Positions 12,405 through 63,436 of a stretch of 64,000 nucleotides of DNA are shown here, piece by piece. The notes beneath the pieces were generated by a model that was not told the DNA's origin, searched no databases, and was given only the letters and a program-made list of their open reading frames with translations. Both the position numbers and the translations under genes were made by a program. Positions within the stretch are counted from its first letter, which is position 1. Each line of letters starts with the position of its first letter. The stretch comes from Clarkia xantiana subsp. parviflora (Eukaryota; Streptophyta; Magnoliopsida; Myrtales; Onagraceae), in assembly GCA_036873135.1 (NCBI GenBank), contig JAPTYO010000002.1, positions 45,189,452 through 45,253,451 on the forward strand, in the 5' to 3' direction.

Positions 12405-13227
12405 TGTTGTGTCCAAATCCAACCGGGTAGTCGGACTCTTCGGCACTTCGGGTTGGGGACACGTCGGGTGTCGGAAATGAACTTTCTGATGTCGGCAAGG
12501 GGATGTCAGCAATATGCACTTGTCGGCATGTTACGGCTGTCTGGAGTGCAAGCTTGTCGGCAAGGTACGGGTGTCTGCAGTGCAAGCTTGTCGGCAAGGT
12601 AAGCTTATCGGCAAGGTACGACTATCTAGTGCAAGCTTATCGACAAGGTACGGCTATCTGCAGTGCAAGATTGTCGGCAAGGTAAGCTTATCGGCTTCGC
12701 GCGACTTCACCAGCACACGGGAAAATAACCGGCACGGAGAGCGGGGGGTGGTGCCGGTTGAGCCCTCTCCGATGCCTAAATGAAAATCTAGAGAGAGAAA
12801 GTCCTAGAGAGAAGTCAGAGCTTCTAGGCCAAACCTCTTGAGGATGCGTGTAAATGGGTGGCCAAGGTCTCCTATTTATAAGCAACCTTAGAACCGAACC
12901 CGGTTTTCGTGCGGTTCGACGCTGGTTTAAAGGAAAGTAAGAACCGTCGTCTGGTTTGTTTAAGTTGGCCTAGGAGAACTCCTTTTCTCAGTGTTCGGAC
13001 GATAAAAGGATGTGCGTGGTACCTGTTGACGGTCCGGACCACGTCGGATTCGACATCCGGCGTGGTCCGGACTGCCTAGGCAATCCGGAGGTTCTGGTCC
13101 GGACGCATACGTGCGTCCGGACCGTTTTAATCATCGGGTGTTTGTTTTTCAGACCCATTTGTGGTTTTCGACGTGTTTGCGAAGTCTGGAATGTAAATAC
13201 GAACCCGAATTGGGCAGATATCCAACA
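12405..13227 (-). repeat. 3' LTR of Gyp-E
   Basis: It is bounded by TGTTG and CAACA and aligns with 59974-60828. On the minus strand it holds a TATA-like CTTATAAATAGG near 12870-12882 and, downstream, the box GCATCGGAGAGGG and a perfect hairpin (12727-12735 with 12751-12759). Differences from the other copy include indels near 12870 and in the GGTCCGG-rich region. Confidence 0.92.
12727..12780 (-). promoter_or_regulatory. LTR hairpin and GGAGAGGG box (Gyp-E 3' LTR)
   Basis: Arms AACCGGCAC (12727-12735) and GTGCCGGTT (12751-12759) pair perfectly around a C-rich loop (minus strand CACCCCCCGCTCTCC). The minus-strand box GCATCGGAGAGGGCTC lies just upstream in the transcript, and its GGAGAG can pair with CTCTCC in the loop. 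Equivalents with different arm sequences occur in Gyp-C, D and F. Confidence 0.75.
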
Positions 13228-15265: not shown

Positions 15266-15959
15266 TGATAGGTTCTGCTATGGCCGTTAGGCCCCTTAAC
15301 GGTGAGGAAACGGCGAACAGGCCCACTGGGCCCCAAATGAAGGTCAAGATGACCCAGGTGAAGGGTCCCGACATAGGGAGTCCCGATGATGAAAGGTCCC
15401 GACAGGGTCGGTCCCGATAGGTGAGCTGGAAGCTCCCGATGAGAAGCCTTTAAGTAGGCCCCGATGACGAATCCCTGAGAACGATTGGCCCTGTCACGAT
15501 GACGAGGGGCCCCGAGCGGTGACATAACGAGATAACTCTGGAGTCCCCGATGTTAGTCGGGACTCGCCATCAGAGGTTAAGGCCGAGATACGCGGGGTGT
15601 GGCCGAGATATGCGGAGCGTAGTTGAGATACGCGGGGCGTGGCCGAGATAAGCGAGATCTGGCCTAGATAGGCGGGATCGTGCACGAGATACACGGGATG
15701 CGGGCTAACAATCCCAACGGTTCACCAGGTAACTGAGGTACCTCTCCGCCTATAAAAGGGCAGAGGTCACCTCAGGTCATTTACGTTGTGTTATACACTT
15801 TGAGATTACTGCTTGCCAGTCCATATGAGATACTCATTTAAGCATCAGAGAGGGATTCTGGGTCACCGCCCGTTCTATCCCCTCTTTGCAGGACCACGTG
15901 GAGCGAAGGAGCTAGGATCGCCGTCAAAGACCGTACCGGAGTTCCACCGTGATCCAACA
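15266..15959 (+). repeat. 5' LTR of Gyp-B
   Basis: It is 694 bp, begins TGATAGG and ends CAACA. A TATA box (CTATAAAAGG) lies near 15751-15760, followed by the box AAGCATCAGAGAGGG (15840-15854). It aligns with 25758-26469 at high identity, apart from small indels in the GGCCGAGATACGCGG-rich segment. Short ORFs in it are chance. Confidence 0.95.
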
Positions 15960-15977
15960 TTGGCGCCGTCTAAGGGA
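15960..15977 (+). other. primer-binding site of Gyp-B
   Basis: TTGGCGCCGTCTAAGGGA directly follows the LTR. Gyp-A has TTGGCGCCGTCTGTGGGA at the same place. The start TGGCGCC is common in plant gypsy elements. I do not assign the tRNA. Confidence 0.8.
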
Positions 15978-15996
15978 AGCGTAACAAAAAGCTGAT

Positions 15997-17937: not shown

Positions 17938-17954
17938 AGGAAGCGAACTTCCCG

Positions 17955-25757: not shown

Positions 25758-26469
25758 TGATGGGTTCTGCTATGGCCGTTAGGCCCCTTAACGGCGAGGA
25801 AACGGCGAACAGGCCCACTAGGCCCCAAATGAAGGTCAAGATGACCCAGGTGAAGGGTCCCGACGTAGGGAGTCCCGATGATGAAAGGTCCCGACAGGGT
25901 CGGTCCCGATAGGTGAGCTGGAAGCTCCCGATGAGAAGCCTTTAAGTAGGCCCCGATGACGAATCCTTGAGAACGATTGGCCCTGTCACGATGACGAGGG
26001 GCCCCGAGCGGTGACATAACGAGATAACTATGGAGTCCCCGATGTTAGTCGGGACTCGCCATCAGAGGTTAAGGCCGAGATACGCGGGGCGTGGCCGAGA
26101 TACGCGGAGCGTAGTTGAGATACGCGGAGCGTGGCCGAGATACGCGGGCGTGGCCGAGATAAGCGAGATATGGCCTAGATAGGCGGGATCGTGCACGAGA
26201 TACACGGGATGCGGGCTAACCACTCAACGGTTCACCAGGTAACTGAGGTACCTCTCCGCCTATAAAAGGGCAGAGGTCACCTCAGGTTATTTACGTTGTG
26301 TTATACACTTTGAGATTACTGCTTGCCAGTCCATACGAGATACTCATTTAAGCATCGGTGAGGGATTCTGGGTCACCGCCCGGTCTATCCCCTCTTTGCA
26401 GGACCACATGGAGCGAAGGAGCTAGTATCGCCGTCAAAGACCGTACCGGAGTTCCACCGTGATCCAACA
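25758..26469 (+). repeat. 3' LTR of Gyp-B
   Basis: It is 712 bp, from TGATGGG to CAACA, and aligns with the 5' LTR at 15266-15959. It is followed by the second TSD copy CTACT (26470-26474), after which Cop-H LTR sequence resumes. Confidence 0.95.
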
Positions 26470-28768: not shown

Positions 28769-29473
28769 TGTTGGATCACGGTGGAACTCCGGTACGATCT
28801 TTGACGGTGATCCTAGCTCCTTCGCTCCACGCAATCCTGCAAGAGGAGATAGACCGGGCGGTGACCCAGAATCCCTCTCCGATGCTTAAATGAGTATCTC
28901 GTACGGACTGGCAAGCAGTAATCTCAAGTAAGGTATTTCAACGTCAGTGATCTGAGGTGACCTCTTGCCCTTTTATAGGCGAAGAGATACCTCAGTTACC
29001 TGGTAAACCGTTGGGGGTGGTTAGCCCGTATCCGTGTATCTCGGGTGTGATCCCGCCTATCTAGGCCATGATCTCGCTTATCTCGGCCACGCCCCGCGTA
29101 TCTCGGCCACGCTCCGTGTATCTTAACCATGTTCCGCGTATCTCGGCCACGCCCCGCGTATCCCGGCCTTATCCTCTGATAGCGAGTCCCTACTAACATC
29201 GGGGACTCCAGAGTTATCTCGTTGTGTCACCGCTCGGGCCCCCTCGTCATCGTGACAGGGCCTAATGTTCTCAGGGATTAGTTATCGGGGCCTACTCAGA
29301 GGCATCTCGTCGGGAGCGTTCAGCTCGCTTATCAGGTCCGACTCTGTCGGGACCTCTCATCCTCGGGCTCCCTTCGTCGGGATCCTTTGTCTTGGCCTTC
29401 GTTTAGGGCCCACCAGGCCTATTTGCCGTTTCCTCACCGTTAAAGGGCCTAACGGCTGTAGTCGAACCCATCA
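28769..29473 (-). repeat. 3' LTR of Gyp-A
   Basis: It is 705 bp, TGTTGG to CATCA on the plus strand. The minus strand carries TATA (CTATAAAAGG, about 28971-28980) and the box AAGCATCGGAGAGGG. It aligns end to end with 36907-37613. Confidence 0.95.
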
Positions 29474-31262: not shown

Positions 31263-31263
31263 A

Positions 31264-32730: not shown

Positions 32731-32748
32731 TATCGGGTTCCTCGCTTC

Positions 32749-33128: not shown

Positions 33129-33146
33129 TGCCTGGCCCTTAATGGC

Positions 33147-34118: not shown

Positions 34119-34296
34119 CCACCAACTGGTCGATTCTCGGGAGTGGGTAACAGTCCTTCGGGCAAGCCTTATTCAGGTCGCGGAAATCCACACACATCCG
34201 CCATTTCCCATTAGTCTTCTTCACCAGTACCGGATTAGCGACCCAAGTTTGGAATCGGAGCTCTTTAATAAACCCAGCATCGAGCAACCTGCCCAC
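34099..34296 (-). pseudogene. pol: reverse transcriptase fingers (Gyp-A)
   Basis: FQTWVANPVLVKKTNGKWRM, CVDFRDLNKACPKDCYPLPR. It is bounded upstream by a TAG where Gyp-B has CAG and downstream by the one-base insertion near 34114. Confidence 0.88.
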
Positions 34297-34299
34297 CTC

Positions 34300-34818
34300 C
34301 TACTGGATCGCGATCTTCTTGTCTGTGCCTATCGGACGCCTTTTCTGCGTGATAGGTTTGATTGCGGGGTCTATCTTCAGCTCGTGTACGATCACATCGG
34401 GGCTGATTCCTGGCATATCGCTCGGGGACCAGGCAAACAGCTCCTTGAACTCCTTCAGCAACTCAATCAATTTTTGGGCTGTCTCCTCAGTCAGAGCAGA
34501 CCCGATTTTCACCTTCCTCTGGGGTCCGTCGATCTCAACTTCTTTTAGATCTTCTATGGGGGCGGGACGCCCAAACTCCTCTCTAGGATCTGTATCTGTC
34601 TGGAGGACAGTCATGGCCTCTCGCCTTCTCCTTCGGGTGGCGTTAACATAACATCTTCGGGATGCTACCTGGTCACCCTTGACCTCTCCGACTCCGTGGT
34701 CGGTCGGGAACTTCATCTTCTGGTGCACTGTCGAGGCAACTGCCATTAGGGGGTTGATGGTGGTTCTCCCGATAATCGCGTTGTAAGTCCCCGCGGAATC
34801 AACTACCACAAACTCCAC
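34300..34818 (-). pseudogene. pol: protease end and RT N-terminus (Gyp-A)
   Basis: EFVVVDSAGTYNAIIGRTTI and AVASTVHQKMKFPT are the C-terminal part of the protease domain. KELFAWSPSDMPGISPDVIVH and ITQKRRP lead into RT. It is bounded upstream by a TGA where Gyp-B has TGG (Trp), and it ends at the TAG just before EVGRLLDAG. Confidence 0.9.
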
Positions 34819-34836
34819 GTTCCTCCTTTCTGATTT

Positions 34837-36870
34837 TCACCCACTACCAAACTCCACTGGTAAGGTGATTACTCCTAGCGGATAGGAGGTAGAACCAGAG
34901 AACCCCACCATCGGGAAGTTTGCCTCCTTCAGATCTTTCTTCGTTTTTCCCATAGCCTCCATCGCGTCCATAAATAGAATATCGGAGAAGCTCCCTCCGT
35001 CGATCAGAATTCGCTTCATCTCGTACCCGTCTACATCCAAGGTCACAACCAAGGCGTCATCGTGCGGAGTCTCCACGCCTATGAGATCCTCCGACGAAAA
35101 GGAAATCACCATCTCTTCCTTCAAGGTCCAGGATCGAGACCTCTTACCTAGCACCACAGCCGTAGGAATTCTAGAGGCGTAAACCTCCCGAGAGGACGAG
35201 GTATCACCTCCAGCAGCAAATCCTCCGTGAATCACATTAATGGTGCCCCGTCGTTCTTTGCGGGCACCGGACGGCTCCGGATCGGACCTCTTCTTCTTTG
35301 GGGACCGATCGCGGGATCGAGAACGGGACCGCGATCGGGACCGAGAGCGGGATCGACACCGCTTATCCCCGACGAACTCCTTGAGCTTCCCCTTCTGGAT
35401 CAGTTTTTCGATCTCCTTCTTCAGCTCCCGACAATGGTTGGTGTCGTGACCATTTGCGCGGTGGAATCGGCAGTAGCGATCCGTGCGGGATCCTAAGAAT
35501 TCTCCATCCTTCTTTGGGGGGTACCTGGAGATACCTTGTCGTTCCATGACCGTTAGTACCTCCGCCATGGAGCAGTTGAGAGGAATGTCGAGATCCTCCC
35601 ACTTGTCCTTCCTTAAAGAACGCCTATCATCTCTCCGACCAGAGCGGCCTCGATCCCGACTGCCCTCGGGTTTACCCTTTGACTTACGATCGTCGAAAGG
35701 TTTAACCGACTGCTTCCCTTTATTCGACTTCGGGGGCTCCAGCTCTCCAGCGGCTATCTTCGACTCCTGGACATCGATTTTCCGTTTCACCCTCTTCTGT
35801 AGTGCCTCCATATTCCACACGGCTTTCTCAGCCACGCTGTGCATTAGGTCGGAACCGTAGGGGGCCGTTAGGTTCCGAATGAATGCACGGATGGTTTCAC
35901 CCTCCGAGATCTCCTCATCAATCTCCGCCACACTGGCAGTGTACCGCTGGTAATAGTGTGCCAGCGATTCGTCGGGCCTCTGTACCACCTGGGTCAGGGA
36001 CCTCACACTCTTCAGCAAACTTCTACGACCCTGGTACTGCTGAATGAACCGGCCGTGCATATCTGCCCAGCAAGTGATGCAGCCTGGGGGCAGACTAAAG
36101 AACCAGGTCAGGGCTCTTTCCCTAAGTGTGTTTGGGAACAGCGTACAAACTATGTCTTCATTCGGGGCTCTTCCCAGACACGCCATGAGGTGCTTCTGGA
36201 CATGACGAACCGGATCTCCTTCGCCATCGTATTCCTTTATCGTGGGGATACCCAGCCCTGGTGGGGCTAGGGTGTCTATGAGTCGAGGAACGAAGGGATG
36301 AGTAGATCGATCCCTCAGCTCCGACACCAGCGGCTTCTTCTCTCCCATGCAGATGTTCACGATCTTTACCACCTGATCGGGGGTGATGGGACCATTCAGG
36401 GGAATGGTCCTGTGCTGTACTGGTCCTGGCCCATCAACCACGAATCTCTCTGGTTGAACGGACACCCTACTCCTGTCTTGGCCTCTGGGCGAAGCCTCCC
36501 GTACGTTCCTAACCTCTGCTGGTGGGGGTGCTTCTTCTAACGGGGGCATCTCCTCCTGCCTCCTCGCGGCCTCTCTCCGATCCAAGAGAGCCTCCACGGC
36601 TGCCAAAAACATAGGCATGGCTTCTGCCACAGCTCTTGTCAGGTCCGTAGCTGGGGGAGCCTCCTGCTCCCTATTGCCCTGGTGCTGAGCGGCAATCTCT
36701 TCGGGACCTTCATTATGCCCCCCTGTCTGGGAGAGCTCAGCAGCAGGATGGTTCTGGTTTTCCTCCTGTTCTGGTAGTGAATTTAGAGTTGTCGCAGCGG
36801 GGTGACGGGAACCACCAGATTGTCCTTTCCTTCTTTGCCTGCCAGCCGCCATTGAACGAGTAGAAGGCAT
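34837..36870 (-). CDS. gag-pro: Gag-protease of Gyp-A
   Basis: This 677-residue frame shows that gag and protease are one open frame in this family. The Gag core has WFFSLPPGCITCWADM, FIQQYQGRR and AFIRNLTAPYGS. The zinc knuckle CRFHRANGHDTNHC lies near residue 466, and a strong Arg-Ser tract near 503-522. Then come the GTINVIHGG box and the protease active-site region ILIDGGSFSDIL. The ATG lies about 18 bp from the PBS. The frame ends at TGA (34837-34839) where Gyp-B has Trp. It matches Gyp-B across its length, with small indels in the N-terminal third. Confidence 0.94.
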   Translation of the reverse strand: MPSTRSMAAGRQRRKGQSGGSRHPAATTLNSLPEQEENQNHPAAELSQTGGHNEGPEEIAAQHQGNREQEAPPATDLTRAVAEAMPMFLAAVEALLDRREAARRQEEMPPLEEAPPPAEVRNVREASPRGQDRSRVSVQPERFVVDGPGPVQHRTIPLNGPITPDQVVKIVNICMGEKKPLVSELRDRSTHPFVPRLIDTLAPPGLGIPTIKEYDGEGDPVRHVQKHLMACLGRAPNEDIVCTLFPNTLRERALTWFFSLPPGCITCWADMHGRFIQQYQGRRSLLKSVRSLTQVVQRPDESLAHYYQRYTASVAEIDEEISEGETIRAFIRNLTAPYGSDLMHSVAEKAVWNMEALQKRVKRKIDVQESKIAAGELEPPKSNKGKQSVKPFDDRKSKGKPEGSRDRGRSGRRDDRRSLRKDKWEDLDIPLNCSMAEVLTVMERQGISRYPPKKDGEFLGSRTDRYCRFHRANGHDTNHCRELKKEIEKLIQKGKLKEFVGDKRCRSRSRSRSRSRSRSRDRSPKKKRSDPEPSGARKERRGTINVIHGGFAAGGDTSSSREVYASRIPTAVVLGKRSRSWTLKEEMVISFSSEDLIGVETPHDDALVVTLDVDGYEMKRILIDGGSFSDILFMDAMEAMGKTKKDLKEANFPMVGFSGSTSYPLGVITLPVEFGSG

Positions 36871-36888
36871 ATCAGCTTTTTGTTAGTT

Positions 36889-36906
36889 TCCCACAGACGG
36901 CGCCAA
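36889..36906 (-). other. primer-binding site of Gyp-A
   Basis: Minus strand TTGGCGCCGTCTGTGGGA abuts the inner end of the 5' LTR. Confidence 0.8.
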
Positions 36907-37613
36907 TGTTGGATCACGGTGGAACTCTAGTTCGATCTTTGACGGTGATCCTAGCTCCTTCGCTCCACGCAATCCTGCAAGAGGGGATAGACCAGGCGGT
37001 GACCCAGAATCCCTCTCCGATGCTTAAATGAGTATCTCGTACGGACTGGCAAGCAGTAATCTCAAGTAAGGTATTTCAACGTCAGTGATCTGAGGTGACC
37101 TCTTGCCCTTTTATAGGCGAAGAGATACCTCAGTTACCTGGTGAACCGTTGGGTGTGGTTAGCCCGTATCCCGCGTATCTCGGGTGTGATCCCGCCTATC
37201 TAGGCCATGATCTCGCTTATCTCGGCCACGCCCCGCGTATCTCGGCCACGCTCCGTGTATCTTAACCACGTTCCGCGTATCTCGGCCACGCCCCGCGTAT
37301 CCCGGCCTTATCCTCTGATAGCGAGTTCCCGACTAACATCGGGGACTCCAGAGTTATCTCGTTGTGTCACCGCTCGGGGCCCCTCGTCATCGTGACAGGG
37401 CCTATTGTTCTCAGGGATTCGTCATCGGGGCCTACTCAGAGGCATCTCGTCGGGAGCGTTCAGCTCGCTTATCAGGTCCGACTCTGTCGGGACCTCTCAT
37501 CCTCGGGCTCCCTTCGTCGGGATCCTTTGTCTTGGCCTTCATTTAGGGCCCACCGGGCCTATTTGCCGTTTCCTCACCGTTAAAGGGCCTAACGGCTGTA
37601 GTCGAACCCATCA
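36907..37613 (-). repeat. 5' LTR of Gyp-A
   Basis: It is 707 bp and nearly identical to 28769-29473. The second TSD copy GTGAG follows at 37614-37618. On the minus strand it has the TATA box and the box AAGCATCGGAGAGGG. Confidence 0.95.
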
Positions 37614-37618
37614 GTGAG

Positions 37619-38493
37619 TATGTTTCATCAAAGTCCACTCCGTGGATTTAGGTATATCCTTTCGCAACTAGTCGAGCTTTGTATCGCTCGACTTCTCCAT
37701 CAGCAGTGAGTTTGAGTTTTAATACCCACTTTGCTCCTATTGCTCTGCGGTTCATAGGCAAATCAACTAATGACCAAACCGTATTAGCTTTCACTGAGGC
37801 GATTTCATCTTCCATTGCTTTTCTCCATTCCTTTGCTTGAGGTACGTCCATCGCTTGTTAAACCGTTACTGGTTCATCAACAGATCTGAGAGTGAATATT
37901 TCGCCTCTCTCAATGGGATACCTTTTAGGGAGTTTGACCCATACTTCCACTTGGAATAATGCTTCTTATCGGGGCACTACTCCCGCTGGGAATGTTGGCG
38001 TTACTAGAACTTTGAGCAACAACTTCCCTAGGACGACCCCTTCGTCTCGGAATTTCACCTCCGAGATTAGTTCTTTGATCGCTAGGATCTGGAACTGGAG
38101 CGATCATCCCACTCCCACTTGAAATAATGGGAATTTCGGGTAGTTGTGTGTTATGAATGTCAGGTTCTACTTGATTCGCATTCCCAGCAATAGTGATTTG
38201 TATTGGGGGGGGGGGGGGGACTGAGCCCTCCCACTGGATTATAATGGGAATATCGTCCTCATTAACCGGATCACTTGTTGCTGAGCCAAATCTCCCACTC
38301 GAATAAAGTGGGACCTTAGAATCATCATCATCACGTCTCTGGATTCATGTTCGTACACACTACCTTTTTCTTGAGTTGACACAAATACATAACCTTTTGA
38401 GTTCTCGGAGTATCTTATAAAGATGCTCTTAAGTCCTCTGAGGCCTAACTTGCCAAATCGGCTGTCAGTTGTATGTGTGTAAGCTGCGCACCC
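37619..38493 (-). pseudogene. pol: copia integrase-RT linker and RT start (Cop-H)
   Basis: 37648-37851 reads KEWRKAMEDEIASVKANTVW and KARLVAKGYT, the start of copia RT, and is cut by Gyp-A. The linker 37852-38493 repeats GTGGGAGT-like words and aligns with Cop-G 1285-1960. It contains a G-run near 38206-38219 that probably breaks the frame. Confidence 0.85.
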
Positions 38494-41728: not shown

Positions 41729-42397
41729 TGATGGATATACACCCAATTTGAACCCGTTGACTTCCGAATCGTTTTATTTTTATCACCCCGTTAATGATTA
41801 TAAATCGAAACTTCGACCTGAACACCCCGCCGAAACACCAACGGTCCGGACGAGGCGAAAATACTCGTCCGGGCCACGCGACGAACTCACCTAGGTGAGG
41901 TAGGGTGGCCACACCCGACCTCCCCTAGGGGAGATCGGGTTGGCCAACCCATCTCCCCTAGGGCAACCCCTACCCTTGGGGGTCGGATTTTCTCTCCGCC
42001 CCCAAGGGCCCTGGCACCGTTTTCCGACTCCCACACTTAGATTATTTCCGCCAACCTCTCCATGCTTTAAGGTTTTAATTATGTGATCAAGGACTAATTA
42101 ATTGTGTTCGAAGGTTAACGATGTCATTAAGTCACCTTAATGACACCGTTGCCTATAAATACGACCCTTCCACCACTCATTTGATCATCTGGATTATTGT
42201 GAAGTTTAGCTCTGGCATCTCTCTAGCTTTATCTCTCTAGAAGTATCATTCTGACTTAAGCATCGGAGAAGAGAAGCAAGGAAGCAGAAGGACGTGGATC
42301 AGAACGACAAGCCCCAAGAGCACTGAACCCGTAATTTCACCAGTGAGGAATAAGGTTTAGATCGACAACCCGTTGACCTAAAGCTTAGAACCTAACA
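41729..42397 (+). repeat. 5' LTR of Gyp-C (lacks the hairpin)
   Basis: It is 669 bp, TGATGG to TAACA. TATA (CTATAAATACG) lies near 42153-42163. Compared with 51188-51945, it lacks 69 bp spanning the C-rich hairpin, bounded by the repeat GGAGA, and about 20 bp near 41960. Confidence 0.95.
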
Positions 42398-45795: not shown

Positions 45796-46054
45796 GTTTA
45801 ACATTCAGAACTTTGCATGTTCAAGCATTTTAAGTTTTCCAAAAACAACTTTTGAGAAGGAGAACTCAAGAAGTTACTCCGACTCTACAACTATCTTTGA
45901 ATTCCTCTAAAGGGTGTCTTGATTCATCCAAGGCACCCCAAATGTACATAAAGCATGAATGCTCCTAATGAAGTAGAAGTTACTCAAAAGTATCTTTCAA
46001 AGAAGACGGTGATATAATCATTATGTTATCCTTACACATATATGACTTCCAAGT
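45796..46054. other. spacer in Gyp-C
   Basis: Unique sequence between the second gag piece and the tandem array. No feature was seen. Confidence 0.4.
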
Positions 46055-46855
46055 CAACAACACCCTCAACGCCCCCAAGAGCGTATCTTGAGAGTAGTTT
46101 TCATACTACGACCTTCAACGCCCCCAAGAGCGCATCTTGAGAGTAGTTTTCATACTACGACCTTCAACACCTCCAAGAGCGTATCTTGAGAGTAGTTTTC
46201 ATACTAAGACCTTCAACGCTTCCAAGAGCGTATCTTGAGAGTGGTTTCCAAAAACTACGAACTTCGACGCCCCCAAGAGCGTATCTTGAGAGTGGTTTCC
46301 CAAAACTACGAACTTCGACGCCCCCAAGAGCGTATCTTGAGAGTGGTTTCTAAAAACTACGACCTTCGACGCCCCCAAGAGCGTATCTTGAGAGTGGTTT
46401 CTAAAAACTACGACCTTCGATGCCCCCAAGAGCGTATCTTGAGGTAGATTTCAAACTACCAGATTCGACGCCCCCAAGAGCTTATCTTGAGGTAGATTTC
46501 AAACTACCAGATTCGACGCCCCCGAGAGCGTATCTTGAGGTAGATTTCAAACTACCAGATTCGACGCCCGAAAGAGCGTATCTTGAGGTAGATTTCAAAC
46601 TACCAGATTCGACGCCCACCAGGAGCGTATCTTTGGTCTAACTTGTGCCCTCCGGGAGCCTATCCTGTGAAACGTTAAGTGCCCTCCGAGAGCCAGTCTC
46701 GTGAACAGTTTTCGACGCCCACCAGGAGCGTATCTTTGGTCTAACTTGTGCCCTCCGGGAGCCTATCCTGTGAAACGTTAAGTGCCCTCCGAGAGCCTGT
46801 CTCGTGAACAGATTCGACGACCACCAAGAGCGTATCTTTGGTCTAACAGTACCAT
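46055..46855 (+). repeat. tandem array of Gyp-C, shared with Gyp-D
   Basis: Units of about 50-60 bp are built on CGCCCCCAAGAGCGTATCTT. Then come longer units of about 115 bp that add TGCCCTCCGGGAGCC and GAGAGCC segments. The themes are the reverse of those in Gyp-D at 8333-9125. ORFs on both strands follow from the repeat. Confidence 0.92.
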
Positions 46856-47298: not shown

Positions 47299-49776
47299 TC
47301 AACCAGAGCCTGCTGGAGAGTCCTCACGATCCTGACCCTCTGAGGAAGAACCACCAACAGAGCTCGAAGAAGATGAGGAAGAGCCTGAACTATCAACATC
47401 CACGGGTATAGCATCCACCTGTGCAAGGGCAGGCTCATCAGCAACGGCAGCTTGACCCCTAAGAACGGCCATATAACCAGCAACATATGGCCCAAAGTCA
47501 CCCAGATCATTGACGGGAAACTGGGGATCAATACGGAAGATATGATCGACAAGGTACTCCCCGAACTGGTTCATCTCCTGGTTCAACCGAACGCTGTAAT
47601 CAGCAGTAAAGGCAGGGGAAGCTTTGTACTCAGCTACTGCAGCAGCTCTCTCCTCCACCCGGCACCTCGCCTCAAGCTTCGTCAACTCCTCAGCATGGAG
47701 TGACGAGGCAACATCAGCCTCACGGTGCAAACCACCCACGGTAGTCTCAAGTAGAGCTACCTGGTCCCTAAGCTCCTGCATCTGCAAGTCAGACAGGCGA
47801 GCATTCTTAGCGGCAGTGGCAAGCTCCGCCTTCAAGGATACCTGGTTATCCTCAAGGGCCTTCTTCTCATCTGACAGCTCAAGCGCAAGAGACGACATAT
47901 TCACCATGTCGGACATACCCTGAAAATTCAACAAGGGGTAAATGACTTAGCAAGCAATCACATGAAAGTAGAAAAGGAAGAGAAACACCACTCACAGGAA
48001 CATAGCGGGATAACACCCTCTGGATGAAGCGCCGGGTCTCCTTAGGGGACTTGGGCTGAGGAACACGATCACCAGGAGCGATGGCACCGCGAAGTACCCG
48101 AATGCCAACCTCCGGGGTGCGCAAGGAGGAACCGCTGTCAAAGTGGAACTCCTTCAATCCAGCAAAGGGAGACCACTCAGCTCCCACAATATCCTCGTCA
48201 ATGAGGCGCACAAAGTCCTTCCGACTCAGCCGGAGGCCCACCTATGCATAGAAAGCAAAGTAAAGAAAAATACAAGCATAGAAGCATCAATGAAATAAAG
48301 AATAAACGAACCTGTAGACCGTGCCCTCGGCTGGGGGGCAGGAGATGGAGAATCAGTGACCACCCCACCATCGCCAGCAGGCCGCTTCCCTTTATCAGCC
48401 CGGGAAGGCGCCTCTTCGACCACTATCTCTTTGTCGCGAGACAGGGTCGGGTGACGAACAGCCTTCTTCTTCTTGACAGCCGAGGCCCCAACCTCAGAGT
48501 CAGACCTCCCTGACTTGGACTTAGAAGGTCCAGAGCCCTTGCACACAGAGATGACTCTCTCGGTCACCAAGGGAGAGTGCCCTAACAACACCAGGAAAAC
48601 AACATGAGAGAAAACACAAGTATACCATAAGACGAGAAAGAAAGAAGCATACCAGAGGCCCCAGCAGTCTTCCCAGACATAGGGGACTTCTTCGGAGTAG
48701 AGCTGGAGGGAGCCCTCCTCTTGCTCAAGTAAATTGGCGCTGCCTGCACGTTATACGTTTTCCCGTGAAACCAACCTATAAGGAAAAAACAGAAAATAAA
48801 TATAGATGAGAAGACTAAGTAACATACCGAATCCCCGGAGAGAGGAGTCAAACTAATCCCTGCCTCATAGAGGTCTGTCTCGGTCACCAAGGACACAGGG
48901 CAGTAAGACTGGGTCTTGTGGCTCTCGTAGATAGTCTTCATGGTCTCCAAGTCCACAGAAGAGAACTCCCCAAAGGCAGGCCAGCCGTCCGATCGGTCCT
49001 CATTCAGAACCGACCAGGTGACGTATCGATCCGTGATAAAGAAGTAGTGTTTGGCCCAATGGCTCGCCGAATTATCGCTCCGAACCACGAAACAAAGAGA
49101 AGTATTCCACTCAACCCCGCTCAACCCGAAATGAGCAAACCGGGAATCTTTGAGGGAAGGGTAGCGAGTCACGAAACTCGCGAAGCCTACCTTCTTCTGA
49201 TACTGAAATCGGAAGAAGCACCGGAACAAGACCAAGGAGTACTTCCAGGAGTACCACTGACATAGCACCCGGAAACCCACCCAGATGCGAATAGCGCTGG
49301 GGGCAAGGTTCACAGGGGAGATCCTAAAGAATCTGCTCAGCTCTACGAGCCCATCACAATAGGGTAGGCGTAACCCAAACCGAATCTGGGAAGGATAGAC
49401 GACAACCTTCCCCCTAGGAGGCTCTGTCACTGTCTGGCGAGTGTTTCCCAAAGAAGGGAGGAAGGGGTACAAAGGCTCATCTAAAGGACAAATGTCGCCT
49501 AAGGTGACATGCTCATTATAGTCGGACCTAGTCAAATGGTTCTCCGACAAAGCAGCGAGACCTAAATCAAAGGCGGTGAGAAATTCCAAGCTCGAATCAG
49601 GCTCCGACCAATACCCTGACTCAGTATCCGACTCAGAATCCGACTCCGAACTAATGCCAGGAAAGAAAATAACGCGACGAACAGAGGGAAATAAAAACTT
49701 ACACATCCTTCGAAGGATATAGCGCCTCTGCCAAGTTTGTGTACGGGGGCACCACCACGAGTACAATACCTGTCAT
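47299..49776 (-). CDS. antisense spliced gene of Gyp-C (Transposase_28-like)
   Basis: It is encoded against the element in about six exons. I place introns at 49651-49702, 48744-48827, 48582-48652, 48242-48311 and 47920-47995, each with GT and AG ends and most at 70-84 bp. Exon 2 holds an acidic start (SESDSESDTESG) and a globular domain (PLDEPLYPFLPSLG, APSAIRIWVGFRVLCQW, WAKHYFFITDRYVTW). From memory this resembles the plant 'putative gypsy-type transposon' family. Next come a Lys-rich segment, LSRKDFVRLIDEDIVG, a coiled coil (about 47600-47900) and a Ser-rich acidic tail before the stop at 47299. Phases agree at four of five introns; the one at 48242-48311 is off by one base. The first intron (52 bp) is short. 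Start choice (ATG at 49776) is tentative. Confidence 0.7.
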
Positions 49777-51187: not shown

Positions 51188-51945
51188 TGATGGATATACG
51201 CCCAATTTGAACCCGTTGACTTCCGGCTTGTTTTATTTTTATCACCCCGTTAATGATTATAAATCGAAACTTCGACCCGAACACCCCGCCGAAACACCAA
51301 CGGTCCGGACGAGGCGAAAATACTCGTCCGGGCCACGCGACGAACTCACCTAGGAGAGGTCGGGTGGCCACACCCGACATCCCCTAGGGGAGATCGGGTC
51401 AGCCAACACATCTCCCCTAGGGAGGGGTTGGGTGGCCACACCCAACCCCTACCCTTGGGGCTCGGATTTTCTCTCCGCCCCCAAGGGCCCTGGCACCGTT
51501 TTCCGACTCCCACACTTAGATTATTTCCACCAACCTCTCCATGCTTTAAGATTTTAATTATGTGATCAAGGACTAATTAATTATGTTCAAAGGTTAACGA
51601 TGTCATTAAGTCACCTTAATGACACCGTTGCCTATAAATACGACCCTTCCACCACTCATTTGATCATCTGGATTATTGTGAAGTTTAGCTCTGGCATCTC
51701 TCTAGCTTTATCTCTCTAGAAGTATCGTTCTGACTTAAGCATCGGAGAGGGTTCATCAAGCACCACCCCCCCCCCCTCCGTGCTTGATACTGCCCCTCTT
51801 GCAGGGTCGCGTGGAGAAGAGAAGCAAGGAAGCAGAAGGACGTGGATCAGAACGACAAGCCCCAAGAGCACTGAACCCGTAATCTCACCACTGAGGAATA
51901 AGGTTTAGATCGACAACCCGTTGACCTAAAGCTTAGAACCTAACA
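51188..51945 (+). repeat. 3' LTR of Gyp-C
   Basis: It is 758 bp. TATA (CTATAAATACG) lies near 51632-51642, then the box GCATCGGAGAGGG at 51740-51752 and a perfect hairpin at 51755-51788. It ends TAACA, followed by AGTAC (51946-51950). Confidence 0.95.
51740..51788 (+). promoter_or_regulatory. LTR hairpin and GGAGAGGG box (Gyp-C 3' LTR)
   Basis: Arms ATCAAGCAC (51755-51763) and GTGCTTGAT (51780-51788) are perfect complements. The loop is CACC followed by a C-run and TCC. It is about 100 nt after the TATA box, hence in the transcribed R/U5 part. Confidence 0.78.
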
Positions 51946-51950
51946 AGTAC

Positions 51951-52430
51951 ACATATCTTTTAGCTTTCCTGCCCAAGAACGATGTGGAGGGAGTTCCGAT
52001 CCTCCGGTCGGAACCACGTGCAAGTTCTTCGTTAGAAGAAGTCCCACGCGATGTAGCTCCACAACAAGACCTATGATCGATTCTTCAACGGAGATGGAAC
52101 CTCGGACTTGATGTTGGTGGTGCCGAAATTTAGACTAGGGTGACAAGTTTTCTCAATGGAAATCCTTGTTCTTAATTGTGTGTTTAAACCCTTAGGAGTC
52201 ACCCCTATATATAGTATTGGGTGGAGTTGCCAAAAGGCAATTCCAACCAATGTGGTACTAGGGTTTCGCCGAACCATGCATAATAAGGGGGGAGGCCCTT
52301 TTTGGGCCTTCCATGTCAATTACTAATTGGATTTGGCCCAATTAGCCCGGATTGACAATTACCTAATTAACTTAGGTAAATCCCTTAATTAACGGGCTCC
52401 TATTACGGCACCACGTCACCATATGCTAAC
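51951..52430 (-). repeat. 5' LTR of Cop-H, part 2 (truncated)
   Basis: It continues from 41728 and aligns with 14677-15150. Similarity ends at ATATGCTAAC (52430), so about 0.8 kb of the LTR is missing. Tandem units of Gyp-E resume right away. Confidence 0.88.
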
Positions 52431-53750
52431 CGTTGGTTAATGGCATAGTGGAACACTTTAGAAAATATTCCTTGATAGTCGACACCTTGTCATATGTCGA
52501 CTGCTGACATAGTGGAATACTTAGAAAATATTCCTTGATAGTCGACACCTTGTCATGTGTCGACTGCATGGAACACTTAGAAAATATTCCTTGATAGTCG
52601 ACACCTTGTCACATGTCGACTGCTGACATAGTGGAACACTTAGAAAATATTCTTTGATAGTCGACACCTTGTCATGTGTCGACCGCTGACATAGTGGAAC
52701 ACTTAAAAAATATTCCTTGATAGTCGACACCTTGTCATGTGTCGACTGCTGACATAGTGGAACACTTAGAAAATATTCCTTGATAGTCGACACCTTGTCA
52801 CATGTAGACCGCTGACATAGTGGAACACTTAGAAAATATTCCTTGATAGTCGACACCTTGTCATGTGTCGACAGCCGATATGGTTGGAACACTTAGAGAA
52901 TATTCCTGATAGCCGACATCTTGTTGTATGTCGACAGCTGATATGGTTGGAACACTTAGAAAATATTCTTGACAGCCGGCATCCCGTTGTATGTCGACAG
53001 CTGATATGGTTGGAACACTTAGGAAATATTCCTGATAGTCGGCACCCCGTTGTATGTCGCAGTTGTACGCGCGTGTTCGTATGTGCGCGCTAGTATGAGC
53101 GCACTTGCCCCCACACTTAGAATCTTTTCTCTATCCCTGGCTATGTACGTTGTATCCATAGGCTTGATGTAAAAATAGGTTGTATGTCGTCGGTTTTCAT
53201 GGAAAAACACTTAGAAAATATTTCTTGATAGTCGACACCTTGTCATATGTCGACTGCTGCCATAGTAGAACACTTAGAAAATATTTCTTGCTTGTCGACC
53301 TCCCATCACATGTCAACATGCTGACATGTTGACATGTAAGAACACTTAGAAAATATTTCTTGCTTGTCGACCTCCCGTCACATGTCGACATGCTGACATG
53401 TTGACATGCAAGAACACTTAGAAAATATTCCATGCTAGTCGGCCTCCCATCACATGTCGACATGTTGACATGTATGAACACTTTGAAAATATTTCTTAAT
53501 TGTTGAAACGTGCTATCTAACATATGGTAGAGCACTTAAAAAATATTTCTTCGCCAGTTGATACTTCGTCATATGTCGGCTGCTGACATAGCAAAATACT
53601 TGGGAATATTTCTTGATAATCGACATCTTGTTATGTGTTGTCTGCTGACATTGTGGAATACTTAGAAAATATTCCTTGATAGTCGACGCTTGTTATCTGT
53701 TGCACGCGTTGTTCATTGCGCGCGTTGCTCGTTGTGTACATGATCATAGC
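52431..53750. repeat. about 61-bp tandem array of Gyp-E
   Basis: Units of CACTTAGAAAATATTCCTTG followed by ATAGTCGACACCTTGTCATG and TCGACTGCTGACATAG. About ten regular units run to 52870, then variants with CAGCTGATATGGTTGG and others with GACATGTTGACATG. Low-order ORFs on either strand follow from the repeat. The array continues left of Cop-H at 14440-14596. Confidence 0.92.
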
Positions 53751-57899: not shown

Positions 57900-59640
57900 C
57901 CTGAGTTTACCTTTGGCAGTAACGCGTGTTACCTGGACCTTGTTCAAGTAGAAGAGATCGTCTTTTGAGGACGATGCTTGGTGTTTCCCTCTTGAGACCA
58001 ATCCATATAGGATGTTGAAGTTGTATTCCTTGTTGGTGCATTTTCTTAGAGGAGCAGTACTGCGTTTTATTGCAATGATTCACTTTTTCACTTCGGTGGA
58101 ATGCCAAGCACTTGTCAGCTTGGTGCCCCCCCAAGCCGCTTGGTAGTCTTATTATTGTTTCTTGATATAGTGTAATGATTGTATCCTGTACGGGGGATGT
58201 TGTGTCCTGTATGCGGGGGTTCAACAAGATGCCCCCGCTCTTGCGTCGAGTGTTGAGGGTGTCTCTTGGTAGCTGTCATGCAGCCGTGCTCATACTTGAG
58301 GAAGACTTGTAAATTCGCTCTTCTCTCTTCTTGCATTTTGATGAAAGTTTGTTTGTTGCTAGGAGTGAGTAAGAGTAATCCTTCCCTTCTCAGATGCGGG
58401 TCGAAGATGATGTTTTCCTGCCAGCGTACGTTTTGAGTGGTACGACCCGTCTTGTGTGCTTGACAAGGGTAAACTTGCTGGATGTTGGAAATAATTCTCT
58501 AACTTTTCTCACGTGATGGGTTTGGCACAGGCGTGCGTATAACATAGGAGTCCATCTGAATTCCTGTCTTCCGCAATGGTGGTGGCGTTTTCACTTAGGT
58601 GATGCCCTCGCCTTGTTTATTACTGCAGCGCGATTTTTAGTCTTGTGCGCATAGAACGCCTGAGGCTCCATTGAATGGGTGTAGTTGGTGCATGCCCTCG
58701 TTGGGGATTTTCGTGAAGATCCGGGATTTGTGCGGATGCGTCGGGAGCGGTGTTATCCTTCCCAGCAAGTACGCCCCGTGATGTTGCACGTGTTCGATTG
58801 GATCTCCCTTTCCTCGATACTTGTCTCCTCCTAGTCTATACAGAGCGTTTGGGACGCGGCTGTACACCAACTTGTCAGCAAATGGATGCGACGCATTCTT
58901 TTCCAACGCGTGCATTCCTTTAAAATTTGACTCTCGCATCTTCTTTTCGATTATTGCCTCCAACGCCTTTGCTGTGAGACCTGTGATTGGGATGTCTTCA
59001 TTGATGACAAGTATTCTTCATCCAGCATTGCGATGGATGTCAGCATTTTTATGACTTGTTCCTTGGAGGGAGACTTCCTTGTACTGCTGCTGCGAGCGGG
59101 TACGTGGAGGTTGTCTCCTTGCTTTTTTCGGATGCTGCATACTTCCATACGGAGTGTATGAGCGTGTTGGCTCCTGCCTTGGTTGCTGGTACTGGAATGC
59201 ACCTTTTGTGTATTGGCCTCTTCCTCCTTGTTGTTGTGACTCTTGTCGTCCGGTGTCGTGCGACACTGCTCTTGCCGGGGCGGCTTGTCTATTGACCGGT
59301 GGTGGAGGTGGTGGTGGCAGAATAAATCCTTGGCTTCTCAGAGTGACTGGTGGGTGTGACTGGTGGCGCTGGGTTGGCACCTCCTTCCTGTTGCTGAACA
59401 CCCTCAGCTGGCATCCCGTAAGGGAACTCTTCATGCCTCCTTGGCTCGAATCCGGGCGGTGGTGCTCCGCGCGGTGTGGTCTGGACTTCTGGGCTGTGCT
59501 GTGCGACAGGCACACTCCTTGCTGGCACGTAGGAAGCAGTGGACGCTGCTTCGGGGATGTGCGAAGGTCTAGGCTGACTCCTTGTCGGATTTTGCGTGGT
59601 TATGACTAAGGCATCGTTGTGTGGGTACACAATGTGTTTT
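57900..59640 (-). pseudogene. gag: Gag of Gyp-E, decayed
   Basis: Read on the minus strand. 59018-59515 and 59289-59640 give a Gln/Pro-rich N-terminus (EEFPYGMPAEG; Gyp-C has YPYGMPAQ). 58637-58963 has EAIIEKKMRESNFKGMHALE, ASHPFADKLVYSRVPNAL and YRGKGDPIEHVQHHGAYLLG, matching the Gyp-C Gag core. 57907-58336 ends with a knuckle remnant KCLAFHRSEKVNHCNK. Frameshifts join these blocks. No protease, RT or integrase follows. Confidence 0.75.
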
Positions 59641-59903
59641 TTGTCTTTTAACGAGAAGCCAATGATATCTTTCATGACGGCATCCTTCATGACGGCATCT
59701 TTCATGACGGCATCCTTCATGACGGCATCTTTCATGACGGCATCCTTCACGACGGCATCCTTCATGACGTCATCCTTTATGACGGGATCCTTCATGACAG
59801 AATCCTTCATGACATCTTCTTCGGACTTGTGCATTGTCTGTGCAGCGTACACTTCTCGCTTGTATAATCTCTCACCTCTGGCGTCAAAGTCTCCATGGAT
59901 CAA
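59641..59903 (-). pseudogene. protease-leader segment placed before gag in Gyp-E, with MKDAV repeat
   Basis: On the minus strand it starts with IHGDF and KREVYAAQ, the box that in Gyp-A, B and C follows gag. Then come about ten five-residue repeats (MKDAV and variants, 15-bp DNA units at 59671-59813), then HIVYPHNDALVITT, again from the protease leader. Gag-like sequence continues in the same frame. So the usual order gag then leader is reversed. The active-site Asp segment is missing. Confidence 0.7.
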
Positions 59904-59973: not shown

Positions 59974-60828
59974 TGTTGCGTCCAAATCCAACCGCGTAGT
60001 CGGACTCTTCGGAACTTTGGGTTGGGGACACGTCGGGTGTCGGAAATGAAATTTCTGATGTCGGCAAGGGGCTGTCAGCAATATGCACTTGTCGGCATGG
60101 TACGGTTGTCTGCGATGCAAGCTTGTCGGCAAGGTACGGCTGTCTGCAGTGCAAGCTTGTCGGCAAGGTAAGCTATCGGCAAGGTACGGCTATCTGCAGT
60201 GAAAGCTTGTCGGCAAGGTAAGCTTATCGGCTTCGCTCGACTTCACCTGCGCACGAGACAATAACCGGCACGGAGAGCGGGGGGTGGTGCTGGTTGTGCT
60301 GGTTGTGCCCTCTCCGATGCCTAAATCAGAATCTAGAGAGAGAAAGTCCTAGAGAGAAGTCATAGCTTCTAGGCCAAACCTCTTGAGAATGTGTGTAAAT
60401 GGGTGGCCAGGCAACCTTATAACCGAACCCAGTTTTCGTGCGGTTCGATGCCGGTTTAAAGGAAAATAAGAACCATCGTCTGGTTTGTTTAAGTTTGGCC
60501 TAGGAGAATTCCTTTTCTCAGTGTTCGGACGATAAAAGGATGCGCGCGGTACCTGTTGACGGTCCGGAACGTCGGATTCGACATCCGGCGTGGTCCGGAC
60601 CGCCTAGGACAATCCAGACTGGTCCGGACTGCCAAGGCAATCCGGAGGTCCGGTTTGCCCTTAGGAAATCCGGAGGTCCGGTTTTCCCTTAGGCAATCTG
60701 GAGGTTCCGGTTCGGACGCATACGTGCGTCCGGACCATTTTATTCCTCGGGTGTTTGTTTTTCGGACCCATTTGTGGTTTTCGACGTGTTTGCGAAGTCC
60801 GGAATGTAAATAAGAACCCGAATTGGGC
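59974..60828 (-). repeat. 5' LTR of Gyp-E
   Basis: It starts TGTTGCGTCC and aligns with 12405-13227. The far end lacks the last dozen bases (AGATATCCAACA in the other copy). Two extra GGTCCGG-type units lie near 60630-60710. The hairpin arms here (60263-60271, 60287-60295) have one mismatch, and the right arm is duplicated. Confidence 0.9.
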
Positions 60829-61783: not shown

Positions 61784-62540
61784 TGTTAAGTCGCGTCACT
61801 TGGGTCAACGGGTCGTCGGTCCAAGTGTCACTTCTCACAGGTAGATAACTTGATCTGATGCTCTATTCGTTCGATGGTCTGATCCGTATCCTTTTCTTCT
61901 TCTGACTTCTCCCTTCTGACTGACCTGTAATAGGGGCAGTACCAATCACGGAGGGGGGGTGGTGCTTGGTGAACCTCTCTGATGCCTAAGTCAGTCTAAA
62001 GTTTCTAGAGAGACAAACTAGAGAGAAGGCAGAGTAAAAGCTAGTAAATGATCAACGTGTTGGAAATGAATAGGATACGAGTTGTATTTATAGGCTTCGG
62101 GGGGATTAAGGTGGCTTAATGACATCGTTAATCCCCTAATTGTATTTAATTAACTCATAACCGTGCGATTAGACCCTTAAAGCATGGAGAGGTAGGCGAA
62201 ATAATCTAAGTGTTGGACGGGTGGAAAAGAGGTCGGGACCCTTGGGGTCGGACAGAAAATCCGACCCCTGAGGCCCGACACCTGGTGGATTTGCCCAACC
62301 ACTCCTAAGAGGGGTTGGGTGAGCCAACCCGGTCTCCCCTAGGATAGATCGGGTCAGCCCACCCGATCTCACCTAGGTGAGGTCGATGGTCGGATCCGGG
62401 CGAGTGAGTTTACCTCGTTCGGACCGTTAGCGTTTTTGGCGAAGTATTCGGGTCAAAGTTTCGATTTACAATCATAAATGGGGTAATCAGAATAAGAAAG
62501 TCTGAATTAAAACGGGTTGTAATTGGGCGTATATCCATCA
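61784..62540 (-). repeat. 5' LTR of Gyp-D
   Basis: It is 757 bp, TGTTAAG to CCATCA on the plus strand. Minus-strand TATA (CCTATAAATAC) lies near 62086-62096 and the hairpin at 61941-61970. The first 250 bp on the minus strand align with the Gyp-C LTR. Confidence 0.93.
61941..61990 (-). promoter_or_regulatory. LTR hairpin and box (Gyp-D 5' LTR)
   Basis: Arms ACCAATCAC (61941-61949) and GTGCTTGGT (61962-61970) pair with one mismatch around a C-rich loop. The box on the minus strand reads GCATCAGAGAGG. Confidence 0.7.
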
Positions 62541-62677: not shown

Positions 62678-63436
62678 TGCGTCCGGGATGAACAAGGTCG
62701 TGGGGACGCGTCTGTTCGTGTAGTTGTGCGGGCTTTTTTGGGTTGTAACCCTTCCGTCAGGAAGAGGTTGGGCCACTGACGAGTGTTCGGACTTGTTCCC
62801 GTATGAGGTCTGAGTTTCGGTACGGCTGAGTCTCGGTAAGGTTGTGTCTCGAACGTCGGTTCCTGCACGAAGGACCAATGCTAGCACGGAGAGGGGGGGT
62901 GGTGCTAGCGGAGCCCTCTCCGAAGCTTAAGTCACTATAAGGTCAAAAAGGTAATTTCTAGAGAGAGAATATTTCTAGAGAGAAGTCAGAGCTCAAAATA
63001 CCAAAGTTGGGCAAATGAGAGAATGTGTGAAAATGGGTGGCCAAGACCTCCTATTTATAGGCTTTCTTGGGACCGGACCCGGTTTTAAAGCGGTTTGATG
63101 ACGGTTCAAGATTATGCGGGAACCGTCATCCATATTGGTAATGTGCGAACTTGACTTCTCTACGCGTAACGGTAATCGCGGATACGGTAGTCGCGCGATA
63201 CCCGTAAGGCAATCCGGACCTCGTCGAATTTGGGCAATTCGGCGAGGTCCGGATCGCCGCGCAACCCGGACCTCCAGATTGCTTTGCGCAATCCGGAGGT
63301 CCGGTCCGGACGCGCGTAAATGCGTTTCCGGACCGTTTTGATACCGTGGGAGATGTTTTTAAACCGAGATGAAATTTTTGACTCGTTTACGAGGCCCGAA
63401 GTGTAAATACGAACCCGAATTGGACATATATCCATC
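62678..63436 (-). repeat. 3' LTR of Gyp-F
   Basis: It is 759 bp, TGTTGCGTCC to CCATCA. Minus-strand TATA (CCTATAAATAGG) lies near 63050-63061 and a perfect hairpin at 62880-62909. The first ten bases equal those of the Gyp-E LTR. Confidence 0.87.
62880..62925 (-). promoter_or_regulatory. LTR hairpin and GGAGAGGG box (Gyp-F)
   Basis: Arms GCTAGCAC (62880-62887) and GTGCTAGC (62902-62909) pair perfectly. On the minus strand the loop contains CCCTCTCC, the exact complement of GGAGAGGG in the box just upstream. Confidence 0.78.

What the first reader, a model, noticed from the sequence alone, without database searches (positions are those of the whole stretch)
61941..61970. Covarying hairpin with a conserved C-rich loop in the LTRs of four gypsy families
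Seen: a short hairpin sits at the same place after the TATA box in Gyp-C (51755-51788), Gyp-D (61941-61970), Gyp-E (12727-12759) and Gyp-F (62880-62909). On the transcript strand the arms are ATCAAGCAC/GTGCTTGAT, ACCAAGCAC/GTGATTGGT, AACCGGCAC/GTGCCGGTT and GCTAGCAC/GTGCTAGC. The inner GCAC/GTGC is fixed, the outer pairs change together, and the loop keeps CACC, a C-run and TCC. Pairing kept through sequence change argues for a selected RNA structure in the R/U5 leader. Inference: it may act in packaging, dimerisation, 3'-end formation or translation. I know of no description of it.
Basis: partly seen in the sequence, partly recalled or inferred. Interest (0 to 1): 0.85.

Follow-up and report, generated by a model that had tools for sequence, protein, structure and literature searches.

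The report
Conserved RNA stem-loop in retrotransposon leaders
Many related jumping genes in this plant-like genome carry the same RNA stem-loop near the start of their transcript, whose letters change in matched pairs so that the fold survives; it looks like an undescribed control signal of these elements, but what it controls is not yet shown.

Summary
The hairpin is real and selected as a structure. In 55 modules 92.0% of arm cells pair (shuffles 75.8%, 0/500). On a tree, 8 double compensations stand against 1.0 expected (0/2000). Pattern matches in the genome run to thousands, reversed-pattern controls 0-1. The C-rich loop is common, not universal. The module starts mostly 77-136 nt after the TATA box in a nearly AUG-free leader (1.2 ATG/kb against 13.4 upstream), so it is very probably transcribed. 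Loops mostly lack G and are not self-complementary, which argues against loop-loop dimerisation; searches for poly(A)-tailed copies and a long-range partner found none. Best reading, inferred: a cis-acting signal on the element's genomic RNA, packaging most likely. Other plants could not be searched.

The parts
51734..51805 (+). Whole module, family C, in the 3' LTR 51188-51945: basal stem P1 + apical hairpin P2
   Evidence: R1 98.3 bits; R2 78.3 bits
51739..51752 (+). P1 5' strand, the conserved 'X box' GCA-UC-GGAG-A-GGGU
51755..51763 (+). P2 5' arm AUCAAGCAC
51764..51779 (+). C-rich loop
51780..51788 (+). P2 3' arm GUGCUUGAU
51792..51805 (+). P1 3' strand and box GCCC-CUCU-UGC-AGG
51633..51640 (+). 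TATA box of the same LTR, 101 nt before the module
61924..61990 (-). Module, family D (P2 at 61941-61970, one G.A mismatch)
62862..62931 (-). Module, family F (P2 at 62880-62909)
12710..12780 (-). Module, family E (P2 at 12727-12759)
60246..60325 (-). Module, second E-like copy with a duplicated stretch at the 5' arm (P2 at 60263-60295)
15837..15892 (+). Module, element G1, 5' LTR (short P2, UGGGU/GCCCG)
26347..26402 (+). Module, element G1, 3' LTR (CUGGGU/GCCCGG)
36974..37028 (-). Module, element G2, 5' LTR
28836..28890 (-). Module, element G2, 3' LTR
42255..42280 (+). Remnant in the C 5' LTR (41729-42397): X box kept, the rest lost by a 69-bp deletion between two GGAGA repeats

Best explanation
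A conserved cis-acting RNA element of Tat-like Ty3/gypsy LTR retrotransposons: a roughly 45-75 nt two-tier stem-loop in the R/U5 part of the 5' leader. Shown: P2 (6-9 bp) and, between families, P1 (X box with TGCAGG box) keep pairing through sequence change; P2 starts at a nearly fixed distance from the X box; the module sits mostly 77-136 nt after the TATA box in a nearly AUG-free leader before the PBS. Inferred: the folded leader marks the element's genomic RNA for a replication step, most likely recognition for packaging into virus-like particles, by Gag or a host RNA-binding protein reading the near-invariant basal stem and its bulges, while the apical stem holds up a G-poor, A/C-rich single-stranded loop. 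Being in the LTR it would be present at the 5' end and, if within R, at both ends.
For: Structure: 92.0% vs 75.8%; covariation 0.377 vs 0.123, 0/500; slid versions at most 0.210; 8 double compensations vs 1.04, 0/2000; 76 of 100 flank-selected strings have a stem of >=5 bp at the site vs 10.5% of shuffles; with every start tried, 74 of 77 such longest stems begin 3-5 nt after the X box; 26 of 32 vs 16.0%. Transcribed leader. Abundance. Shared by element G1 with gag, RT, RNase H, second RNase H and integrase matches and by copy C, where the 8 ORFs scanned (of 28 listed) gave no RT, RNase H or integrase match: fits a signal read in trans. Analogy: leader structures act in packaging or dimerisation in Ty1 (PMC5454406, passages), Ty3 (in vitro dimer site; PMC11381356, passages) and MMTV (PMC8096270, passages).
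Against: No function was tested. Within the 55-module set P1 shows no covariation (0 pairs changed on both sides; 90.7% vs 91.0% in shuffles); its support is between families I chose, mostly one column pair, and the number of pairs with a change on both sides is not beyond shuffles (3 vs 1.8, 59/500). The purine GGAG of the X box is mostly predicted paired, so the likeness to exposed retroviral Gag-binding purines is weak. No C-x2-C-x4-H-x4-C knuckle was found in the window. G.U over A.C excess is weak (53:29 cells, P=0.011 but not independent; 35:24 contexts, P=0.19; 9:4 among multi-copy arms, P=0.27). Near-invariant boxes in many families also fit a host factor with another role.
Confidence: 0.42

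Rival explanations
1. 3'-end formation element: the stem-loop lies in R and helps poly(A) site choice near UUUUGCA, or masks the 5' copy, as the HIV-1 poly(A) hairpin does (recalled).
For: Position soon after the TATA box, where the end of R could lie; strongly conserved UUUUGCA-type box with a YA dinucleotide; conservation across families suits a host machine.
Against: No AATAAA seen by eye between TATA and module in the C and G1 LTRs read. No module-derived poly(A)-tailed copy: 20 listed hits at 6 places, none a module by eye, with 19 control hits (weak test, reaches about 60 nt past the X box).
Confidence: 0.22
2. Translation or export control: a moderately stable leader hairpin that tunes scanning to the gag AUG, or binds an export factor.
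For: 84 of 98 leaders have no ATG from TATA+30 to X+60, so scanning from the cap is plausible; 18 family modules fold at -17.0 to -29.3 kcal/mol.
Against: Stability alone does not call for near-invariant boxes; few upstream ATGs, so classical shunting on an upstream ORF is unlikely.
Confidence: 0.15
3. Dimer initiation by loop-loop or X-box-loop kissing.
For: The X-box GGAGAGGG can pair with CUCUCC in the loop of some families; it is in the MFE of C, F and E2 pieces and of A and F.
Against: 120 of 141 loops have no G, 3 of 141 a palindromic 4-mer. The X-to-loop pairing does not covary beyond shuffles (0.095 vs 0.085, 27/500; pairs changed on both sides 1 vs 2.0), and families G, H, N lack the partner by eye.
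Confidence: 0.08
4. 3' splice site: YTNAY branch-like site before the X box, hairpin looping out the distance, UGCAG|G acceptor.
For: T[GC]A before the X box is nearly invariant (A in 103 of 104); UUUUGCAG|G fits a plant acceptor (consensus CAG/G quoted in PMC3735527, one passage).
Against: Several AG dinucleotides lie between the supposed branch site and acceptor (seen directly); splicing there would remove R sequence needed for strand transfer (established logic of reverse transcription).
Confidence: 0.05
5. No RNA function: descent, C-tract slippage or a DNA dyad explains the pattern.
For: In a tree-aware all-pairs null no pair is significant (best E 1.29 and 1.88); loops are slippery C-runs; one swap test was weak (4.12 vs 3.71, largest permutation 4.15).
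Against: Those two best of about 10,000 column pairs are P2 pairs (about 0.001-0.002 for nine proposed pairs, my arithmetic); 0/2000; 145/150 pairs vs 103.9, 0/100000 (families and register chosen by me). Loop lengths from 3 to over 20 nt do not suit a fixed protein-dyad site.
Confidence: 0.08

Closest known systems
Retroviral R-region hairpins (HIV-1 TAR and poly(A) hairpin)
   Same: Stem-loop soon after the transcription start, in the LTR, so possibly at both RNA ends
   Different: No Rfam match; no trans-activator known here; the A/C-rich, G-poor loop differs (TAR dimerisation/packaging paper PMC3432602 seen as search listing only; the rest recalled)
MMTV/MPMV packaging signal: purine strip near a stem-loop (ssPurines GGAGAAGAG, PMC8096270, passages; MPMV PMC7674771, listing only)
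   Same: GGAG-rich purine strip beside a stem-loop in the leader
   Different: Here GGAG is predicted mostly paired and the loop is not palindromic
Ty1 leader pseudoknot and kissing loops (PMC5454406, passages); Ty3 PAL6 dimerisation site (PMC11381356, passages)
   Same: 5'-end RNA structures of LTR retrotransposons
   Different: Different fold and place (PAL6 lies in the GAG ORF); those rest on complementary or palindromic loops
Sirevirus LTR palindromic motifs (PMC2829016, passages)
   Same: Conserved non-coding motifs in plant LTR elements
   Different: Repeated DNA dyads upstream of the TATA box, in Ty1/copia elements; not a single transcribed stem-loop

Membership tests
Tat lineage of Ty3/gypsy (host elements) | gag-pol with RT, RNase H, a second RNase H and integrase (feature recalled) | tested here: met
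   G1: PF03732, PF00078, PF17917/PF17919, PF13456, PF17921; rve below its cut-off. Fragments beside E carry RVT_1, RVT_3, Integrase_H2C2. Not shown for C; D and F not tested.
Tat lineage of Ty3/gypsy (host elements) | Antisense extra ORF, as known in some Tat elements (recalled) | tested here: inconclusive
   Antisense ORFs at 22466-24852 (no Pfam hit) and 48585-49772 (PF04195 Transposase_28)
Any Rfam family | Match to a curated covariance model | tested here: not met
   0 matches in the window at gathering threshold; 0 at E<=10 for 51640-51950
Retroviral dimer initiation site | Self-complementary apical loop | tested here: not met
   3 of 141 loops hold a palindromic 4-mer, 1 a 6-mer
Retroviral packaging signal (psi) | Needed for selective RNA encapsidation by Gag | not testable with these tools
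   Needs bench work
Poly(A) hairpin / R-region 3'-end element | Lies in R, overlaps or controls the poly(A) site | tested here: inconclusive
   Position could be R; R end unmapped; no poly(A)-tailed copies found

The most novel reading that the evidence does not exclude
An undescribed structured-RNA family carried by many Tat-like retrotransposon families of this genome, perhaps of plants generally: a two-tier leader stem-loop that serves as the common packaging/replication tag of autonomous and non-autonomous elements, and would be a covariation-supported cis-RNA signal in plant LTR retrotransposons.
Probability: 0.33. Interest if true: 0.82.

Novelty: new variant of a known kind. Interest (0 to 1): 0.62.

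Why it matters
LTR retrotransposons make up as much as 90% of some plant genomes (abstract of PMC12786077, listing), yet which RNA signals tell the machinery to package, copy or process their transcripts is poorly known: in that 2025 review of the plant LTR-element life cycle the terms 'packaging signal', 'dimeriz', 'hairpin' and 'secondary structure' have no hit in the main text (term search). A defined stem-loop with covarying pairs in thousands of copies gives a concrete candidate, a covariance model to find elements by their leader, and a direct test of how non-autonomous elements borrow the machinery of others.

Tried and rejected
Rejected or weakened: (1) X-box-to-loop pairing as a switch: good by MFE in some copies, no covariation beyond shuffles. 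(2) Long-range pairing of the X box: longest complement in 2 kb downstream 7, 6, 8 nt vs 6.55, 6.5, 7.25 by chance in G1, C, G2 (for C the X box of the deleted 5' LTR was used). (3) Poly(A)-tailed copies to map the R end: none. (4) Upstream ORF/shunting: 84 of 98 leaders without ATG. (5) Strand test by G.U vs A.C: right direction, weak. (6) Arm swapping over 37 raw arm variants: weak. (7) Non-plant collections: 4 X-box matches lie in unrelated sequence by eye; in the 20 loci model R2 gave two weak matches, E 0.051 and 0.98. (8) Literature strings: searches returned 21 and 28 papers (20 listed each); by title only a bean marker paper looked relevant, holding an X-box-like primer (PMC10213521, one passage).

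Rows dropped or missed: searches used 54 modules; L025 was added for A1 (55). A1 holds 20 rows from loci fetched by the hairpin core, 31 from X-box loci, 4 from the window. G modules under 58 nt are not in those sets. The two are also missing. One non-module string was dropped (165 kept); one search parsed 176 of 177. One search used 144 of 165. In one search the 25 family arm pairs and their register were chosen by me; so were the 23 families.

Full report
WHAT IS THERE. The four hairpins are at the stated places and strands. The core pattern occurs 5 times in the window against 0.15 expected; the fifth hit is a second E-like LTR. A covariance model from 55 modules finds nine full modules in the window (C, D, E, E2, F and both LTRs of two G elements), the remnant at 42255 (E 0.0046) and one match at chance level (38184-38243, E 0.33). 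A model from 23 family representatives finds the same nine, E <= 2e-9, and nothing else at E <= 1; both models contain window or near-identical sequences. The host genome has 695.6 Mb in 59 contigs.

ABUNDANCE. Exact pattern matches in the genome, both strands (reversed-pattern control in brackets): GCACCACCCCCC..CCGTG 7034 (0); CATTTRGGCATCGGAG 784 (0); GACTTRAGCATCRGAG 2948 (0); TCGGAGNGG..CCCTTTTGCAGG 4913 (0); ATCGGAGTGG..TGCAGG 175 (0); AGCATCGGAGGG..TGCAGG 57 (0); AGCGTCGGAG..TGCAGG 1184 (1). The sets overlap, a few matches are not modules, and about 100 places at most are listed per search.

In alignment A1 (55 distinct modules, MAFFT) the nine arm pairs are standard in 92.0% of cells against 75.8% in shuffles (0/500), covariation score 0.377 against 0.123 (0/500), pairs changed on both sides 6 against 3.1 (1/500), slid versions at most 0.210; the number of further pair types is no higher than in shuffles (15 vs 14.7, 286/500). 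One pair shows AU 19, UA 16, UG 8, GC 7, CG 2; another AU 22, UA 21, CG 7, GC 4. Twenty of the 55 rows come from loci fetched by a core that fixes inner GCAC/GTG, so the inner pairs are partly selected; the outer pairs are free. Because copies are related I ran tree-aware tests. In an all-pairs null the two best of about 10,000 column pairs are P2 pairs, but with E 1.29 and 1.88, not significant unless only the nine proposed pairs are tested (about 0.001-0.002, my arithmetic). Counting events on the tree, 8 double compensations were seen against 1.04 +- 1.01 in 2000 simulations with none reaching 8; paired fraction 0.918 against 0.610, none reaching it; broken events (16 vs 19.4) were not significant (238/2000).

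SAMPLES CHOSEN BY FLANKS ONLY. Among 100 distinct ATCGGAGTGG..TGCAGG strings, 76 have a stem of at least 5 bp starting 3-5 nt after the X box, against 10.5% of shuffles; mean MFE -8.77 vs -4.40; when every start is tried, 74 of the 77 longest stems of 5 bp or more begin at 3-5 nt (first run with 98 strings). Among 32 distinct AGCATCGGAGGG strings, 26 do, against 16.0%; MFE -14.53 vs -7.76. Over 165 modules, starts 4 and 5 only, 126 have such a stem, with 42 different outer arm pairs. 25 family arm pairs that I selected pair in 145 of 150 positions, against 103.9 +- 4.5 when arms are swapped (0/100000). An earlier swap over 37 raw arm variants was weak (own 4.12, swapped 3.71 +- 0.14, largest 4.15).

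THE LARGER FOLD (P1). Free folding of 18 family modules shows in 16 of them, by eye, the X box paired with the TGCAGG box, typically GCA/UGC, GGAG/CUYU and GGGN/NCCC; A and F prefer the X-to-loop alternative. Examples: GGAUU/AAUCC (I), GGGCU/AGCCC (J), GGGAU/AUCCC (G). RNAalifold on A1 finds P2 and three P1 pairs. Within A1 P1 is well paired (90.7%; slid 44-55%) but does not covary. Between 23 families it does: 88.5% vs 84.7% (0/500), score 0.190 vs 0.123 (0/500), slid at most 0.081; pairs changed on both sides (59/500) and further types (269/500) are not beyond shuffles, and the signal sits mainly in one column pair (CG 8, AU 5, UG 5, UA 3) (first version). With a register set only by the two boxes, the sum over three positions is reached in 1 of 20000 shuffles, the middle one alone in 14, the other two in 2242 and 2054. 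So the boxes are best read as the strands of a basal stem that also carry sequence constraint. In 180-310 nt leader context most P2 pairs have probability 0.6-1.0 in six window leaders (D's mismatch 0), and GGAG is mostly predicted paired in the eleven pieces scored.

POSITION. In 99 of 104 modules (fetched loci and window) a TATA-like box was found, median 101 nt before the X box, 96 of them 77-136. In 51 of 98 leaders CATTT lies exactly 24 nt after the TATA start, an initiator-like site. ATG density is 2.0-41.3 per kb upstream, with a low stretch of 2.0-6.1 at -220 to -120, and 0.5-2.6 per kb from the TATA box to +200, while the permuted triplets do not fall in step; leader 1.23, U5 1.59, U3 13.44 per kb; 84 of 98 leaders and 36 of 43 U5 stretches have no ATG. 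Copies are related, so these are not independent. This is the mark of a scanned 5' UTR, so the module is very probably transcribed and lies before the PBS (123-354 nt from X box to PBS in 45 modules). Seven later pieces show TATA distances of 84, 102, 105, 96 and 105 for H, I, K, N and R and a TATA about 100 nt before M; none was found for S. R keeps three ATGs and K one between the inferred start and the X box.

LOOP. Over 141 loops: C 74%, G 2%; 120 without G; 115 with at least 60% C; 3 with a palindromic 4-mer. Families N (ACAA), P (UCCAAC) and S (UCCAA) show that a C-run is not needed; the common feature is an A/C-rich loop that cannot pair with itself. The C-run is likely slippage-prone (inference).

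HOST ELEMENTS. G1 has Retrotrans_gag, RVT_1, RNase H, RVT_3 and Integrase_H2C2, i.e. the two-RNase-H layout of Tat elements (lineage feature recalled). Copy C shows a gag match below its cut-off and an antisense Transposase_28 ORF among the 8 ORFs scanned, of 28 listed, so it may be non-autonomous; it keeps the module in one LTR and lost it from the other by a 69-bp deletion between GGAGA repeats.

MECHANISM. Shown: selected RNA fold, leader position, broad sharing among families. Inferred: a cis-signal for replication of the genomic RNA, packaging being the most likely step (about 0.4). Rivals and their tests are given in their sections. Exposed-purine Gag binding and loop-loop kissing are both weakened by my own results.

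NOVELTY. Rfam has no match. Searches with the box strings and with terms (one search returned nothing) listed no paper describing the element, judged by titles and abstract starts of the rows shown. Benachenhou et al. 2013 could not build LTR models for plant Metaviridae (PMC3601003, abstract and passages). Most subscription papers are outside the library, so this is not proof. The library holds one bean primer with an X-box-like string (PMC10213521), a hint that the box occurs in other plants; I also recall similar LTR strings in other plants from memory, untested. The element is filed as a new variant of a known kind (structured retroelement leaders).

Noticed in passing
41729-42397 vs 51188-51945: The 5' LTR of element C lost the whole module by a 69-bp deletion between two GGAGA repeats; the 3' LTR keeps it. 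Structure-assisted template jumping is a possible cause (inference).
   Followed up: partly
60246-60325: The E2 module carries a duplicated stretch at the P2 5' arm (AACCAGCAC twice), a possible slippage event across the hairpin.
   Followed up: no
L120 (G000:C1:28362400-28362800): Two S-family modules lie on opposite strands within 401 nt, in an inverted-repeat arrangement.
   Followed up: no
22466-24852 and 48585-49772 (-): Long antisense ORFs inside elements G1 and C; the second matches Transposase_28 (PF04195).
   Followed up: partly
52387-53700; 21837-22070; 30743-31262; 59637-59843; 46054-46644: Tandem repeat arrays with 63-, 26-, 26-, 15- and 48-51-bp units, several inside or beside elements.
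   Followed up: no
15266-21758 vs 31112-37613: The two G elements lie in opposite orientation and share 6.5 kb at 89.6%.
   Followed up: no
just before the X box: A nearly invariant T[GC]A precedes the X box (T in 101, A in 103 of 104 modules); it is outside P1 and unexplained.
   Followed up: partly
L115, L117: In families H and M the TGCAGG box runs on as TGCAGGTA, which resembles a plant splice donor.
   Followed up: no
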